This document shows, piece by piece, positions 38,083-47,086 of a stretch of DNA of 64,000 bases (positions within the stretch are counted from its first letter, which is position 1; each line of letters begins with the position of its first letter). Origin of the DNA: a virus; the IMG/VR virus record IMGVR_UViG_3300043811_000021, positions 1 through 64,000 of that record. One strand, 5' to 3'. The notes under the pieces were generated by a model that worked only from the letters and a program-made list of their open reading frames with translations, was not told the DNA's origin and ran no database searches. The position numbers and the translations under genes are program-made.

Positions 38083-38865
38083 ATGGGTAAGACATCGATT
38101 TCGTGGACATCGACTATATTACCTAACGGAGATATATCTCCAGGATTTTCATTTAATCCGTGGTGGGGATGTACTGAAATCTCTTCTGGCTGCGACAACT
38201 GCTATGCGCGTGTCTTAGATGGTCGTTGGGGCGGTGAATCGCATTGGGGAAAGGGCGTACCTCGTAAAACCATGAGCGATAGCTACTGGAGACAGCCTTT
38301 GCGGTGGGATGCAATTGCTGCGAAGGATGGTATCAAGCATAAAGTCTTCTGTGCATCAATGGCAGATATAATGGACGATGAGGCTCCAGAAGGACAGCGT
38401 GATAGGTTATGGGAACTGATTCATAACACTCCTAACCTAATCTGGCTACTTCTTACCAAGCGTCCACAGAGATATGCTAAATATCTTCCGCTATTCAACT
38501 GCCCGAAAAATATATGGTTAGGTACAAGTGCGGAAGATCAATCCAACTATAATTTGCGCTGGCCATATCTTAAGTTCGCAGCAGAGGCTAGAGAACTAAT
38601 TAGTTTTATTAGTTACGAACCAGCATTAGGCCCTTTGGAATTAAGGCAAAAGGACGGCAGACCAAACTGGGTAATATGCGGGGCAGAAAGCGGGAATAAC
38701 CGTCGCGACATGGAACAAGACTGGGCGAATAATCTACGATTTGAGTGCGAGAACGACGGAGTTTCGTTTTGGATGAAACAGATGGGCGCTAGGACTCCAG
38801 AGGAAGGTAGTAAGTTAATTCCTGCTCACTTGCTTATACGTCAATTTCCGGGAGAGACTAAATGA
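38083..38865 (+). CDS. DUF5131 (phage Gp37/Gp68) family protein
   Basis: 260 aa. Signature features: 'WWGCTEISSGCDNCYA' (about residues 27-42), 'LLLTKRPQRY' and 'VICGAESGNNRRDM'. The CxxxxxGCxxCY cluster resembles metal or Fe-S-binding proteins. The biochemical role remains unknown even though the family is common in phages. Confidence 0.85.
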   Translation: MGKTSISWTSTILPNGDISPGFSFNPWWGCTEISSGCDNCYARVLDGRWGGESHWGKGVPRKTMSDSYWRQPLRWDAIAAKDGIKHKVFCASMADIMDDEAPEGQRDRLWELIHNTPNLIWLLLTKRPQRYAKYLPLFNCPKNIWLGTSAEDQSNYNLRWPYLKFAAEARELISFISYEPALGPLELRQKDGRPNWVICGAESGNNRRDMEQDWANNLRFECENDGVSFWMKQMGARTPEEGSKLIPAHLLIRQFPGETK

Positions 38866-39293
38866 TTCTTTCAGGCGCAGATATAAATCAGTATATCAAG
38901 TACGGAGGTCTGTCTTTTTCTCCAGAGTTACGCGAAGATCAGTTTCAACAGAATGGAATAGACCTGATCCTTAACGAAGTTGAGTTAGTGCGTAAAGGAG
39001 TAGACATTTCTTTCTATCTCGGTAGTACGAGAGAGTACGTGCAGATGCCGAATGATCTTATGGGAGACGTAGCGTTAAGATCGACTATGGCTCGTGGGAT
39101 AATGCTCATGCCGAACACAAAGGTAGACGCAGGATTTCACGGAAACATTACTCTGGAAATATGGGCATGGAACGATGTAGAATTACCTATCGGGGAGAGA
39201 TTTGTACATTTTGTTCTTCATAAGTTAGCTAGTCCATCAGAACCATATTCCGGTAAGTACCAAGGGCAGACAGGGATTACTCATGCAAAATAG
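38862..39293 (+). CDS. dcd: dCTP deaminase / dUTPase-fold protein
   Basis: 143 aa. 'ALRSTMARGIMLMP' (about 72-85) and 'QGQTGITHAK' at the end match dCTP deaminase family motifs (RSSxAR, and GxTGI). It would make dUTP from dCTP, feeding thymidylate synthesis. The protein is shorter than bacterial Dcd (about 180-190 aa), so a trimmed or regulatory variant is possible. Confidence 0.8.
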   Translation: MILSGADINQYIKYGGLSFSPELREDQFQQNGIDLILNEVELVRKGVDISFYLGSTREYVQMPNDLMGDVALRSTMARGIMLMPNTKVDAGFHGNITLEIWAWNDVELPIGERFVHFVLHKLASPSEPYSGKYQGQTGITHAK

Positions 39294-40831: not shown

Positions 40832-41018
40832 GCGTATTGGAAATGTTACGGTTATAGAAGTTGAAGAAGATCGTCGCTGTGAATTATGTGGAGCAATAGA
40901 AGAATGTCGCCCGTATGGTCCAAAAGGTGAGCAAGTATGTTTCCAGTGTGGAATGAAGAATGAGAAAGCCGCTGAACGTCAATGCAATAAGCACCTTTTT
41001 GGAGAAGGTAATGCATGA
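40824..41018 (+). CDS. Small zinc-binding protein, 64 aa
   Basis: 'CELCGAIEECRPYG' and 'CFQCG' (about 19-45) are two Cys pairs of a zinc ribbon. Probably a DNA-binding accessory. Coupled to the HNH gene downstream by ATGA. Confidence 0.65.
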   Translation: MSRRIGNVTVIEVEEDRRCELCGAIEECRPYGPKGEQVCFQCGMKNEKAAERQCNKHLFGEGNA

Positions 41019-41416
41019 TTAAACGTACTCCCATAAAACGCAAAACTCCCCTGCGCTCCAAGAAGCCTGAGCCGCGCACAGAAAGGATTCCTTTGACTAT
41101 ACTGAGACCCGGTGAAGTGAAGAAAGAAGTAGAAGTCGAACACATATTCCGCGACGGTAGAACAAAGATAAATCAGAACTGTAAAGAGGGTCGTGATCTT
41201 TACCAATCTCGCAAGAGAATAGCATGGGAGGCGCAAGGGAAACTATGTGCTATCTGCCATAAGACTCTAGCATTTAGTGATTCACAGGTGGACCATAAGG
41301 AACCCCGAGGCATGGGCGCAGGAAAGATCGATGATCGCCAAGAGAATATTCAGGCTGTACACCCCATTTGCAATAGTCGTAAGGGGTCTATAAGAGACTT
41401 TGAGGATGTAGACTAA
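41015..41416 (+). CDS. HNH endonuclease
   Basis: 133 aa. 'KLCAICHKTLAFSDSQVDHKEPRGMG' (about residues 77-102) with 'NIQAVHPICNSRKGSI' (about 112-127) is a zinc-type HNH core. The N-terminus is very basic. It sits immediately before the methyltransferase with no gap, so it could be a free-standing mobile nuclease or a partner nuclease. Confidence 0.85.
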   Translation: MIKRTPIKRKTPLRSKKPEPRTERIPLTILRPGEVKKEVEVEHIFRDGRTKINQNCKEGRDLYQSRKRIAWEAQGKLCAICHKTLAFSDSQVDHKEPRGMGAGKIDDRQENIQAVHPICNSRKGSIRDFEDVD

Positions 41417-42959
41417 ATGGATTACCTTTCAATATGCTCTGGATTTGGCGGTGCTGAGTTAGCTTTTGAGCCGCTAGGATGGAATTGTGTGGCAGTTAGT
41501 GAGATAGAACCTGCTGCTTGTTCTGTTCTAAAGTCGCGCTGGCCAAATACGCTGAGCATTGGAGACTTTACAAGAATAGGAGCTACAGATGTCGGACCAA
41601 TCGACCTTTTGGTCGGAGGAACACCTTGCCAATCTTTCTCAATCGCAGGTCTCCGAGGAGGATTGGGCGACGACCGTGGCAACTTGGCGCTCGAATTTCT
41701 TAGACTTGCTGATCGCACACGGCCCAGATGGATACTCTGGGAAAACGTGCCCGGCGTATACTCTGCAACTTCCCACGTCGCTCCCGATCCATGTCCACCG
41801 GAAATCGACTTGGACAGTCCAGACGGACCCAAAGACGGGGAAGAAATCGTGGTTGAGGACGAATACGACGCAGACGAAGACCATGCGTTCTCATGCTTCT
41901 TGGCCGGACTTTCAGAACTCGGGTACGGATATGCCTACAGGACTCTTGACGCTAGATACTTTGGAGTCCCCCAAAGACGCCGTAGAGTTTTTGTTGTCGC
42001 ATATCTTGGAAACGGGAATCGTGCCAGAGCAGTATTATTTGAGCGCAACTGCTTGTCTTGGAATTCTCCGAAGAGCAAAGAAAAGGGGCAAAGCGTTGCC
42101 GGATGCCTTAAGGGTGGCTCTGGAAAACGTGGCTATCCAGACCCATCAGACGGAAACGGAGGAGGACTTGTTGATGTTACAGGAACCCTCGCTGGAGGAT
42201 CAGGAGAACGACTAGCTAACACTTTAGGAACTAGAAATAGCGATGGACGTAATGAACGAGGTGATGGAAGTGGCAATCAGATTGCCACTTGGCCAGCAGA
42301 AGTAACTCAAACTCTCGATTCTCACTATGGCGATAAACAAGGCTTAGAAGACCAACATATTCGGGGGGGGGCAACATTATTTGTCCCATGCAGTAACTTG
42401 CCATCAAGCGAAGGGCGGCGACCCAACGACGGACAATTATGTGGTGACAGGGGGTTTCTTTGACAACCTTAAAGGTTTTCATAATACAGGAAAAGGATGG
42501 TGGAACGAAGGAGACATAGCAGGTACAGTAAGAACTCCAAAGGGAACCGATTCTATAAACCATACTGTTATTTCTTTTTCTAATGTCAGTGATGGTTCTA
42601 GCGCACGTAATGCTAGCGATATTTCCAATCCTCTCACTTGCAGACATGGTGATCCTGGGATGATAGCTTTCAGAACCAATCAAACATCTGCTAATGGACC
42701 GATTCACTCCGTGGATGTTACAGATAGTTTAGCGTCAGACCATCCTCCAGCAGCGGTACAAGGTATGCAAGTACGCAGACTAACCCCTGTAGAGTGCTCC
42801 AGATTGCAAGGTGTACCAGATGACCATTTAGACATACTTCACAACGGTAAACCTCTTGCAGATGGGAACAAATATAGGTTGCTAGGGAACGGGTTTGCTG
42901 TACCAGTCGTGGCATGGATTGGAAGGCGCATACAGATGGTGGAGGATATGACAAAGTGA
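41417..42959 (+). pseudogene. C5-cytosine DNA methyltransferase split by a frameshift at a G9 tract
   Basis: Frame one (41417-42463) holds motif I (SGFGGAELAF), motif IV with catalytic Cys (GGTPCQSFS), the ENV motif (WENVPG) and motif VIII (PQRRRRVFVV). Motifs IX (RRLTPVECSRLQG) and X (LGNGFAVPVVAWIG) are in another frame, open to 42959. The switch falls at nine G residues, 42363-42371; eight G would restore one 514-codon enzyme. As given, the target-recognition and closing motifs are lost. It may be phase-variable, a programmed frameshift, or an assembly error. Confidence 0.85.
41589..42215 (+). CDS. Second gene overprinted inside the methyltransferase, 208 aa
   Basis: An ATG-initiated frame fully inside the methyltransferase in another frame. 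It resembles a protein that often follows or overlaps phage C5 methylases: 'HASWPDFQNSGTDMPTGLLTLDTLESPKDAVEFLLSHIL' (pattern from about residue 101) and 'YLSATACLGILRRAKKRGKALPDAL'. Phage relatives suggest real dual coding. Function unknown. Confidence 0.7.
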   Translation: MSDQSTFWSEEHLANLSQSQVSEEDWATTVATWRSNFLDLLIAHGPDGYSGKTCPAYTLQLPTSLPIHVHRKSTWTVQTDPKTGKKSWLRTNTTQTKTMRSHASWPDFQNSGTDMPTGLLTLDTLESPKDAVEFLLSHILETGIVPEQYYLSATACLGILRRAKKRGKALPDALRVALENVAIQTHQTETEEDLLMLQEPSLEDQEND

Positions 42960-45276: not shown

Positions 45277-45627
45277 ATGGATACCCTCTACGACATCCTC
45301 GGAATCGTACCTGCCTCCAGTCATAATGAAGTGGTGGAGGCGTACCAATCTGGAGTTCGAGCATTATTGGACGGCGGGGATTTCAAGTCTTCGATGTGGT
45401 GGTGGCCGAACCTCGAAAAGATTGATGAGATGACGCAAGCTATGAAGACTCTAGTTCACGGTGATCGCAGGCACGACTACAACCGCAAGCTAATGGCCCA
45501 AGGAATCATCTGCTCTCTCTGTGAAGGAAGAGGATGGAATCGAATGGACGGTTGTCTTACAGAGCGTACATGTATAGCCTGTGATGGGTCTGGTAAATCT
45601 CTATTGAGATATGCAGAGAAGGGATAA
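45277..45627 (+). CDS. J-domain-like protein with DnaJ zinc finger, 116 aa
   Basis: 'MDTLYDILGIVPASSHNEVVEAYQSGVRALL' (residues 1-31) fits the start of a J domain, but the HPD motif needed to stimulate Hsp70 is absent. C-terminal 'CSLCEGRGWNRM…CIACDGSGK' (about 80-107) resembles a DnaJ zinc finger. It could act as a decoy or adaptor of host DnaK. This is inferred from fold only. Confidence 0.65.
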   Translation: MDTLYDILGIVPASSHNEVVEAYQSGVRALLDGGDFKSSMWWWPNLEKIDEMTQAMKTLVHGDRRHDYNRKLMAQGIICSLCEGRGWNRMDGCLTERTCIACDGSGKSLLRYAEKG

Positions 45628-45628
45628 A

Positions 45629-47086
45629 ATGGGAAAGATTGAAAAACTCACGCTTGAGCAACAAATAGCGCATGATCAATGGTTTGAAGAATGTATGCGC
45701 ATCGGTACATGTACTGATCCTGCTGATCGAATAAAAGCGGAATCAGCTATCACGAAGATGTACCAGTTTATCGGCAAACCTCAACCTATATTTGTATGGT
45801 GCGATTCTCCTGCGACATGCATATTAGCGCGGTTCGTATTGCAGGAATGGTTGAAGACTAATAAAGACAATTCTTCCTTGGAGAGTTCCTTGAGGAGTTC
45901 CTTGAGGGGTTCCTTGGGGAATTCCTTGAGGAGTTCCTTGTGGAGTTCCTTGGAGAGTTCCTTGAGGAGTTCCTTGGAGAATTCCTTGGGGAGTTCCTTG
46001 AGGAGTTCCTTGTGGAGTTCCTTGGAGAGTTCCTTGGGGAGTTCCTTGGAGAGTTCCTTGGGGAGTTCCTTGTGGAGTTCCTTGAGGAGTTCCTTGGGGA
46101 GTTCCTTGGAGAGTTCCTTGGGGAGTTCCTTGTGGAGTTCCTTGGGGAGTTCCTTGGGGAGTTCCTTGAGGAGTTCCTTGGGGAATTCCTTGTGGAGTTC
46201 CTTGAGGAGTTCCTTGTGGAGTTCCTTGGGGAGTTCCTTGGGGAGTTCCTTGGGGAGTTCCTTGAGGAGTTCCTTGGGGAGTTCCTTGGAGAGTTCCTTG
46301 AGGAGTTCCTTGTGGGGTCAGCAAGAACAGTATTGGATTGGGTTTTATCGATTTATGGAACTCCACCTAAAGATCGCATACGATCCAGAAAAATCGGCTC
46401 ACCTTGGATGGTGGCAGGATATTGCAGAATCGGCTAATTGGTGGTTTCCGTATGAGGGATTCTGTTTTGTCAGTGAACGACCAATCAGATGCGCAATTGA
46501 CGAACAAAGGAGATTACATCACGATTCATTAGCTGCAATGGAATTCAAAGACGGATGGAAGATTTACTCTTATCATGGAACTACTGTTTCTGCACAACTG
46601 ATTGAGTATCCAGAAACTATCACTATCGACCAGATAAAGAACGAGGGCAATGCCGAAGTGCGGCGCTGTATGATTGAGAGGATGGGGTGGCAGAAATTTG
46701 TAGATTTGTCAGAACTGAAGGTCATCCACTCAGATACTCTTAAATCAAATTTCCCGTCACTATCTCCGTCTGCACTGGTTGACAATTCAGACCCAGCGGC
46801 GTTTCATTACGAAAGTGGAGAAGAGAAGGCAGAATTGCTTGAATCTTCTTTTCTGAAAGACTTCGAGGATCGTCCAATCCGCTTTGTTCGACTCACTTGC
46901 CCTAGTACGGGAAAGATTTATATTCAGCGTGTTGCGCACGATGAGACTAGGGCATATGAGGCTGTTGGAAGGGCGTTCGGAATGTCTGAGAAGGAGTATA
47001 AAAGCGGACGCTATTACCGGCAAGGAGATGTTTTGCTATGGGCGCTCGATCAGAATGATGAGAGAATCGTCCAGCAGCACAGCTAA
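45629..47086 (+). CDS. DUF6745 protein with a 4-residue repeat insert
   Basis: 485 aa. Residues 1-82 and 229-485 are the DUF6745 body: 'YWIGFYRFMELHLKIAYD…WWQDIAESANWWFPYEGFCFVSERP' (from about 233), then 'EYPETITIDQIKNEGNAEVRRCMIERMGWQKF'. Between them about 36 copies of a 12-bp unit encode SSLx (x = R, G, E, W). The role is unknown. The repeat probably forms an amphipathic or beta-solenoid-like stalk and could vary in length by slippage. Confidence 0.8.
   Translation: MGKIEKLTLEQQIAHDQWFEECMRIGTCTDPADRIKAESAITKMYQFIGKPQPIFVWCDSPATCILARFVLQEWLKTNKDNSSLESSLRSSLRGSLGNSLRSSLWSSLESSLRSSLENSLGSSLRSSLWSSLESSLGSSLESSLGSSLWSSLRSSLGSSLESSLGSSLWSSLGSSLGSSLRSSLGNSLWSSLRSSLWSSLGSSLGSSLGSSLRSSLGSSLESSLRSSLWGQQEQYWIGFYRFMELHLKIAYDPEKSAHLGWWQDIAESANWWFPYEGFCFVSERPIRCAIDEQRRLHHDSLAAMEFKDGWKIYSYHGTTVSAQLIEYPETITIDQIKNEGNAEVRRCMIERMGWQKFVDLSELKVIHSDTLKSNFPSLSPSALVDNSDPAAFHYESGEEKAELLESSFLKDFEDRPIRFVRLTCPSTGKIYIQRVAHDETRAYEAVGRAFGMSEKEYKSGRYYRQGDVLLWALDQNDERIVQQHS
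45874..46314 (+). repeat. 12-bp tandem repeat, about 36 copies
   Basis: Unit close to AGTTCCTTGRGG (R and nearby positions vary), in frame in the DUF6745 gene. The repeat keeps three other frames open by chance, which accounts for the shadow ORFs on both strands. Confidence 0.9.

What the first reader, a model, noticed from the sequence alone, without database searches (positions are those of the whole stretch)
42363..42371. G9 tract frameshift in a C5 methyltransferase
The methylase has intact motifs I, IV, VI and VIII before the tract and IX and X after it, in a shifted frame. Removal of one G restores the enzyme. Such tracts cause phase variation by slippage in host-adaptive genes. In a phage it could switch methylation on and off to suit host restriction. 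An assembly error is the main alternative.
Basis: partly seen in the sequence, partly recalled or inferred. Interest (0 to 1): 0.7.

Follow-up and report, generated by a model that had tools for sequence, protein, structure and literature searches.

The report
Slippery on/off switch in phage methylase
A virus of bacteria carries a DNA-methylating enzyme whose gene contains a run of nine Gs that has knocked it out of frame, and dozens of related viruses carry the same kind of run at lengths that leave the enzyme sometimes whole and sometimes broken, which points to a random genetic on/off switch for DNA methylation.

Summary
A G9 run at 42363-42371 is the only G run longer than 6 in the window. 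It divides a C5-cytosine methyltransferase: motifs I-VIII lie in one frame and IX-X in the +1 frame. The closest tract-bearing relative, L082 (52% aa), has G9 in the same inter-motif region and the same break. Pattern scans found 43 distinct phage methylases with G9-G12 between motifs VIII and IX: 18 intact, 16 broken exactly at the tract, 9 broken otherwise. Without a tract, 97 of 102 are intact. Near-identical contigs differ at the tracts: L084 and L158 have 7 differences in 1,246 alignment columns, 5 of them single-G indels in two G runs. L169 (G9, intact) and L173 (G10, broken) are 98.9% identical over 450 nt. The broken state is scattered over the tree, and identical lengths recur in different samples, which argues against random assembly error. 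Best explanation: slippage-driven phase variation of a phage methylase, with the window caught OFF. Switching in this phage, methylation and benefit are untested. I found no phage precedent in the papers I could search. Unexplained: OFF alleles are almost always one G too long (16:1).

The parts
41417..42463 (+). C5-cytosine methyltransferase, N-terminal part as encoded (motifs I-VIII, proximal variable region, then an out-of-frame tail of about 30 residues to a stop)
   Evidence: ORF; PF00145 3.7e-42; phrog_116 1.1e-59; M.HaeIII/M.HhaI hits
42363..42371 (+). G9 homopolymer, the frame break; relatives have G7-G12 in the same inter-motif region
   Evidence: relatives
42348..42959 (+). C-terminal part in the +1 frame (distal variable region, motifs IX and X); first possible start TTG 42381
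   Evidence: motif IX-X match at about 42759-42956
42372..42463 (+). OFF-state tail read in the N-terminal frame (ATLFVPCSNLPSSEGRRPNDGQLCGDRGFL stop); starts like the common GG-LFVP module
41589..42215 (+). overlapping ORF X, 208 aa, in the +1 frame inside the methylase gene; conserved in relatives (accompanying feature, not part of the switch)
   Evidence: no PHROG match
41015..41416 (+). HNH endonuclease gene directly upstream (stop codon adjacent to the methylase ATG)
   Evidence: PF01844 1.4e-7; PHROG HNH families

Best explanation
The gene is a phage C5-cytosine DNA methyltransferase that is phase-variable. A poly-G run in its target-recognition region gains or loses Gs by slipped-strand mispairing. 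At one length class the N-terminal catalytic half is in frame with motifs IX-X and a whole enzyme is made (ON). At the next length the frame runs into a stop within about 20-70 codons and a truncated protein without motifs IX-X is made (OFF). The window's genome is in the OFF phase. Shown: the tract, the intact halves, the same arrangement in many relatives, both phases in nature, and length differences at the tract between near-identical genomes. Inferred: replication slippage as the cause, loss of activity in the OFF state, and an advantage from mixed methylated and unmethylated phage populations facing hosts with different restriction systems.
For: (1) L082 (52% aa) has G9 in the same inter-motif region and the same +1 break; L008 has G11 and +1. 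(2) Distinct loci with a tract >=9: 18 intact, 16 broken at the tract, 9 otherwise broken; without a tract, 97 of 102 intact (Fisher p 1e-9). (3) In scans blind to G content, G>=8 runs occur at 0.86-1.2 per kb between motifs VIII and IX against 0.009 per kb elsewhere on the same contigs. The glycines are coded either by mixed GGN codons (always in frame) or by pure G7-G11, with nothing in between. (4) L084 vs L158: 99.4% identical over 1,246 columns, two substitutions, five indel columns all in two G runs (7,9 vs 10,7). L169 (G9, ON) vs L173 (G10, OFF): 98.9% over 450 nt. L100 (G11, +2) vs L160 (G10): 96.7% over 608 nt. (5) On the tree the OFF label needs 14 changes for 15 rows, no better than shuffled labels, while tract-independent splits cluster. 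(6) L188 has the window's downstream module in frame right after a G8.
Against: No second length was seen in this phage itself; near copies of the window's record may be left out of the searches. No reads, expression or methylation data. L169 and L173 have different recognition modules starting about 40 nt after the tract, so that pair is not a pure slippage event. Cultured or complete phage records checked (7) have no tract, so no tract-bearing isolate is in hand. The 16:1 excess of one-G-too-many OFF alleles is not predicted by symmetric slippage. The post-tract segment is conserved in the OFF frame.
Confidence: 0.78

Rival explanations
1. Sequencing or assembly error: the true tract has one G fewer and the gene is simply intact.
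For: Homopolymers are error-prone and most tract-free relatives are intact. Read data are not available.
Against: Identical contigs from different samples share the same out-of-phase lengths (L158, L164 and L178; L084 and L096). Broken frames are common only where the tract is long. Length differences of two and three Gs between near-identical contigs are not typical consensus errors.
Confidence: 0.08
2. A fixed split enzyme: motifs I-VIII and IX-X are two polypeptides from overlapping frames, as in M.AquI, the second starting at TTG 42381 with the G run as ribosome-binding sequence.
For: The division matches M.AquI's subunits (PMC3404938). L082 has a TTG at a comparable place after its tract. 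A separate clade (L085, L086, L091, L093, L110, L115, L118) does show a fixed split away from the tract.
Against: In tract-bearing relatives fused and broken forms are scattered rather than clade-specific. Relatives about 99% identical around the tract are fused. The only nearby start in the window is a TTG.
Confidence: 0.07
3. Fixed tract with decoding-level correction: RNA polymerase or ribosome slippage on the G run yields some whole enzyme constantly, so the run is a dimmer and not a switch.
For: For M.HaeIII, frame-shifting indels in homonucleotide repeats, G and C repeats included, are bypassed to give functional enzyme (PMC3812077).
Against: Tract lengths vary among near-identical genomes and ON lengths are common. 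This can coexist with phase variation as leakiness of the OFF state.
Confidence: 0.07
4. The methylase is a dying pseudogene with an ordinary frameshift.
For: The reading frame is broken.
Against: Both halves keep all motifs and open frames. Independent relatives carry the same class of break at the same kind of tract with intact counterparts.
Confidence: 0.03

Closest known systems
Phase-variable bacterial restriction-modification genes with G tracts, e.g. Campylobacter jejuni cj0031 (PMC4889913) and the Helicobacter/Neisseria/Haemophilus mod genes
   Same: Repeat tract in the reading frame; length change turns a DNA methyltransferase on or off; many homologues lack the tract (also reported for cj0031)
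   Different: Here the gene is phage-borne, it is an orphan-type C5-cytosine enzyme rather than type IIG or III, and the tract sits inside the target-recognition region next to exchangeable modules, often with a second tract
M.AquI and M.EcoHK31I two-polypeptide C5 methyltransferases (PMC3404938)
   Same: Motifs I-VIII in one frame and IX-X in another (M.AquI)
   Different: Those are fixed two-subunit enzymes; here fused and broken forms alternate among near relatives at a homopolymer
Orphan phage C5 methyltransferases (Pfam PF00145, phrog_116)
   Same: Motif order, gene size, place among DNA-metabolism genes
   Different: Most members lack a G run and are intact
M.HaeIII frame-shift bypass (PMC3812077)
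   Same: C5 methylase with indels in homonucleotide repeats
   Different: Laboratory drift and decoding-level rescue, not a natural length switch

Membership tests
C5-cytosine DNA methyltransferase | Motifs I, IV (PC), VI (ENV) and VIII (QRRRR) in order | tested here: met
   SGFGGAEL, GGTPCQSFS, WENVPG, PQRRRRVFVV in 41417-42463; PF00145 3.7e-42, M.HaeIII alignment
C5-cytosine DNA methyltransferase | Motifs IX and X | tested here: met
   RRLTPVECSRLQGVPDD and GNGFAVPVVAWIG in the +1 frame, PF00145 8.4e-9
C5-cytosine DNA methyltransferase | Methylates cytosine at a defined site | not testable with these tools
   needs expression and bisulfite or nanopore data
Simple-sequence-repeat phase-variable locus | Long homopolymer or short repeat inside the reading frame, beyond chance | tested here: met
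   G9, only one in 134 kb; tract density about 100 times higher in the variable region of module-scan relatives than elsewhere on their contigs
Simple-sequence-repeat phase-variable locus | Length differs between otherwise near-identical genomes | tested here: met
   met in relatives: L084 vs L158, L169 vs L173, L100 vs L160; not seen for the window itself
Simple-sequence-repeat phase-variable locus | Both ON and OFF lengths occur in nature without clade structure | tested here: met
   18 ON, 16 broken at tract; OFF unclustered on the tree
Simple-sequence-repeat phase-variable locus | Reversible switching at measurable rate with a phenotype | not testable with these tools
   needs phage passaging and read-level data
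Two-subunit C5 methyltransferase (M.AquI type) | Frame split fixed within the lineage | tested here: not met
   fused and broken forms mixed among tract-bearing relatives; the nearest tract-bearing kin of the window include intact L032
Two-subunit C5 methyltransferase (M.AquI type) | Second polypeptide separately translated | not testable with these tools
   only a TTG at 42381 is available near the tract
Phasevarion | Switching changes expression of other genes through methylation | not testable with these tools
   no expression data

The most novel reading that the evidence does not exclude
The G tract chooses between two meaningful reading frames rather than between ON and broken. OFF alleles are almost always one G too long, and in that register the enzyme continues into a conserved recognition-region segment (GG-LFVP or GG-LNGQDAYTGRI) whose codons vary at third positions even in intact loci. 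The OFF product could then be a selected short form, or the tract could be a frame selector next to exchangeable recognition modules, diversifying specificity as well as switching it.
Probability: 0.15. Interest if true: 0.82.

Novelty: new variant of a known kind. Interest (0 to 1): 0.64.

Why it matters
Phase-variable DNA methylation is well described in bacteria as a defence against phages and a gene-expression switch. Here phages themselves appear to carry the same kind of slippage switch in their own modification enzyme. If true, a clonal phage population would hedge between methylated and unmethylated DNA, which bears on how phages cope with restriction enzymes and with nucleases that attack methylated DNA. 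The family offers many natural ON/OFF pairs for a direct test, and gene callers will score the OFF forms as pseudogenes.

Tried and rejected
Looked for the same tract in cultured or complete phage records: 7 records checked, none has a G run over 5. The genome-collection scan with the QHI-type pattern gave nothing; the DGAH..NGQDAY pattern gave two bacterial MAG contigs, both ON. An initial worry that the post-tract similarity of L082 to the window was only shared DNA in both frames was resolved by noting both genes break at the tract in the same direction. Loci counted as broken away from the tract (L085 group and others) were kept out of the ON/OFF tally. The literature search found no report of a tract-controlled phage methylase, but only open-licence PubMed Central papers are held. 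Structure prediction was not used, as it would not decide between the explanations.

Full report
What is there. The + strand of the window holds a G9 run at 42363-42371. It is the only G run longer than six in 64 kb and the only G9 in the 134,145-base virus record. A first-order expectation is about 0.07 such runs per 64 kb. Before the run, ORF 41417-42463 carries motifs I-VIII of a C5-cytosine methyltransferase (PF00145 3.7e-42; phrog_116 1.1e-59; M.HaeIII and M.HhaI). After it, motifs IX and X lie in the +1 frame, open from 42348 to 42959 (PF00145 8.4e-9). The 192 codons from 42381 contain no stop, which has a chance of about 1e-4 in random sequence.

Relatives show that the tract is not a private accident. 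The relative L082, 52% identical in protein, has G9 in the same inter-motif region and the same +1 break. L008, 45% identical, has G11 and a +1 break. L032, in the same well-supported tree group as the window and L082, has G9 and is in frame. L188 has the downstream module of the window (KGGDPTTDNY) directly after a G8 and in frame. Most of the other closest relatives have no run and are intact.

Scans for more cases. Two pattern scans for this methylase block followed by G8 gave 42 contig stretches. Two further scans used only flanking peptide patterns and did not ask for G. In the latter the result is bimodal. The glycines between DGAH and NGQDAY are coded either by mixed GGN codons with runs of 2-3 Gs, always in frame, or by pure runs of 7-11 Gs with spacings of 13, 14, 15 or 16 bases. 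G>=8 runs occur at 1.2 and 0.86 per kb between motifs VIII and IX in these two scans, and at 0.009 per kb elsewhere on the same contigs. The relatives found by protein similarity alone show a weaker excess (0.047 against 0.010 per kb), because most of them lack the tract.

Phase. After removal of duplicates, 43 loci have a tract of at least nine Gs and both halves of the enzyme in view. Of these, 18 are intact, 15 are shifted by +1 and one by +2 with the tract in the overlap of the two frames, and nine are broken in other ways. Without a tract, 97 of 102 are intact (Fisher p about 1e-9 for breaks at the tract). The tract-requiring scans enrich for tracts, but they put no condition on frame.

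Length differences in near-identical genomes. L084 and L158, from different samples, align over 1,246 columns with seven differences. Two are substitutions and five are gap columns, all in two G runs (G7 and G9 against G10 and G7). L169 and L172 (G9, intact) and L173 (G10, broken) are 98.9% identical over 450 nt including the tract. L100 (G11) and L160 (G10) are 96.7% identical over 608 nt. Identical genomes from different samples keep the same lengths: L084 and L096; L158 and L178, with L164 sharing the second tract; L169 and L172. Random assembly error would not do this. On a tree of the N-terminal halves the OFF label needs 14 changes for 15 rows, no fewer than typical shuffles (196 of 500 as low), as expected for a switch.

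How it most likely works. Replication slippage adds or removes a G. In one length class the catalytic half continues into the distal recognition region and motifs IX-X. In the neighbouring class it stops after roughly 20-70 codons, giving a protein without motifs IX-X. That slippage is the cause, and that the OFF form is inactive, are inferences from known C5-methylase anatomy and known repeat-driven switches (for example cj0031, PMC4889913). Some leakage in the OFF state is likely, because frame-shifting indels in homonucleotide repeats of M.HaeIII are bypassed during expression (PMC3812077). The benefit, a mixture of methylated and unmethylated phage facing different hosts, is a reasonable guess only.

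What does not fit neatly. OFF alleles are almost always one G too long (16 against 1, two-sided p 0.0003). In that register the frame runs into a segment that is also found in tract-free relatives (GG-LFVP, GG-LNGQDAYTGRI). In 24 loci the LFV codons vary mainly at third positions of that frame, even where the gene is intact in another frame. Three readings remain open: biased slippage, repeated import of the segment from tract-free relatives by recombination, or selection on the short product. Recombination is plausible, since L100, L160, L169 and L173 are about 98% identical in the N-terminal part but differ in recognition modules. Many loci carry two tracts, so more than one position may need to be in phase.

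Rivals. A two-polypeptide enzyme like M.AquI divides at the same place (PMC3404938). One clade (L085, L086, L091, L093, L110, L115, L118) does show a fixed split away from the tract. In the window's class, however, fused and broken forms alternate. Assembly error and simple decay are disfavoured for the reasons above. Decoding-level bypass can coexist with the switch.

Limits. There are no reads, no expression data and no methylation data. Close copies of the window's own record may have been withheld from the searches. All tract-bearing cases come from metagenome-derived contigs, two of them in bacterial MAGs (L189, L190, both in frame). None of the seven cultured or complete phage records checked has the tract. 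The literature search covered only open-licence PubMed Central papers and found bacterial but no phage examples.

Noticed in passing
41589-42215 (+), and the homologous place in relatives: A second ORF (X, 208 aa) lies in the +1 frame inside the methylase gene. In 162 of 174 relatives that frame is open for at least 120 codons, against 2 of 174 for the other frame, so it is probably a real overlapping gene; no PHROG matches it.
   Followed up: partly
L085, L086, L091, L093, L110, L115, L118: One clade of these methylases has motifs I-VIII and IX-X fixed in two different frames away from the tract (mostly overlapping by about 40-80 nt), as in the two-subunit enzyme M.AquI.
   Followed up: partly
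L100, L117, L160, L169, L172, L173: Methylases about 98% identical in the N-terminal part, some also near the C-terminus, carry different recognition-region modules, and in L169/L173 the switch of module starts about 40 nt after the G tract; this looks like exchange of target-recognition modules.
   Followed up: partly
L084, L087, L092, L094, L102, L105, L106, L107, L149, L155, L158: Several methylases carry two or three G runs of at least 7 in the recognition region, so an intact frame may need two tracts in phase at once.
   Followed up: no
45611-47086 (+), DNA about 45824-46437: A 491-aa protein (DUF6745) contains a long run of near-identical SSL-x repeats (GSSLESSLRSSL...), an internally repetitive stretch of about 500 nt that could itself vary in copy number.
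   Followed up: no
38083-38865 and 38862-39293 (+): Neighbours are a DUF5131 protein and a dCTP-deaminase-like protein, suggesting a nucleotide-metabolism and modification region around the methylase.
   Followed up: no
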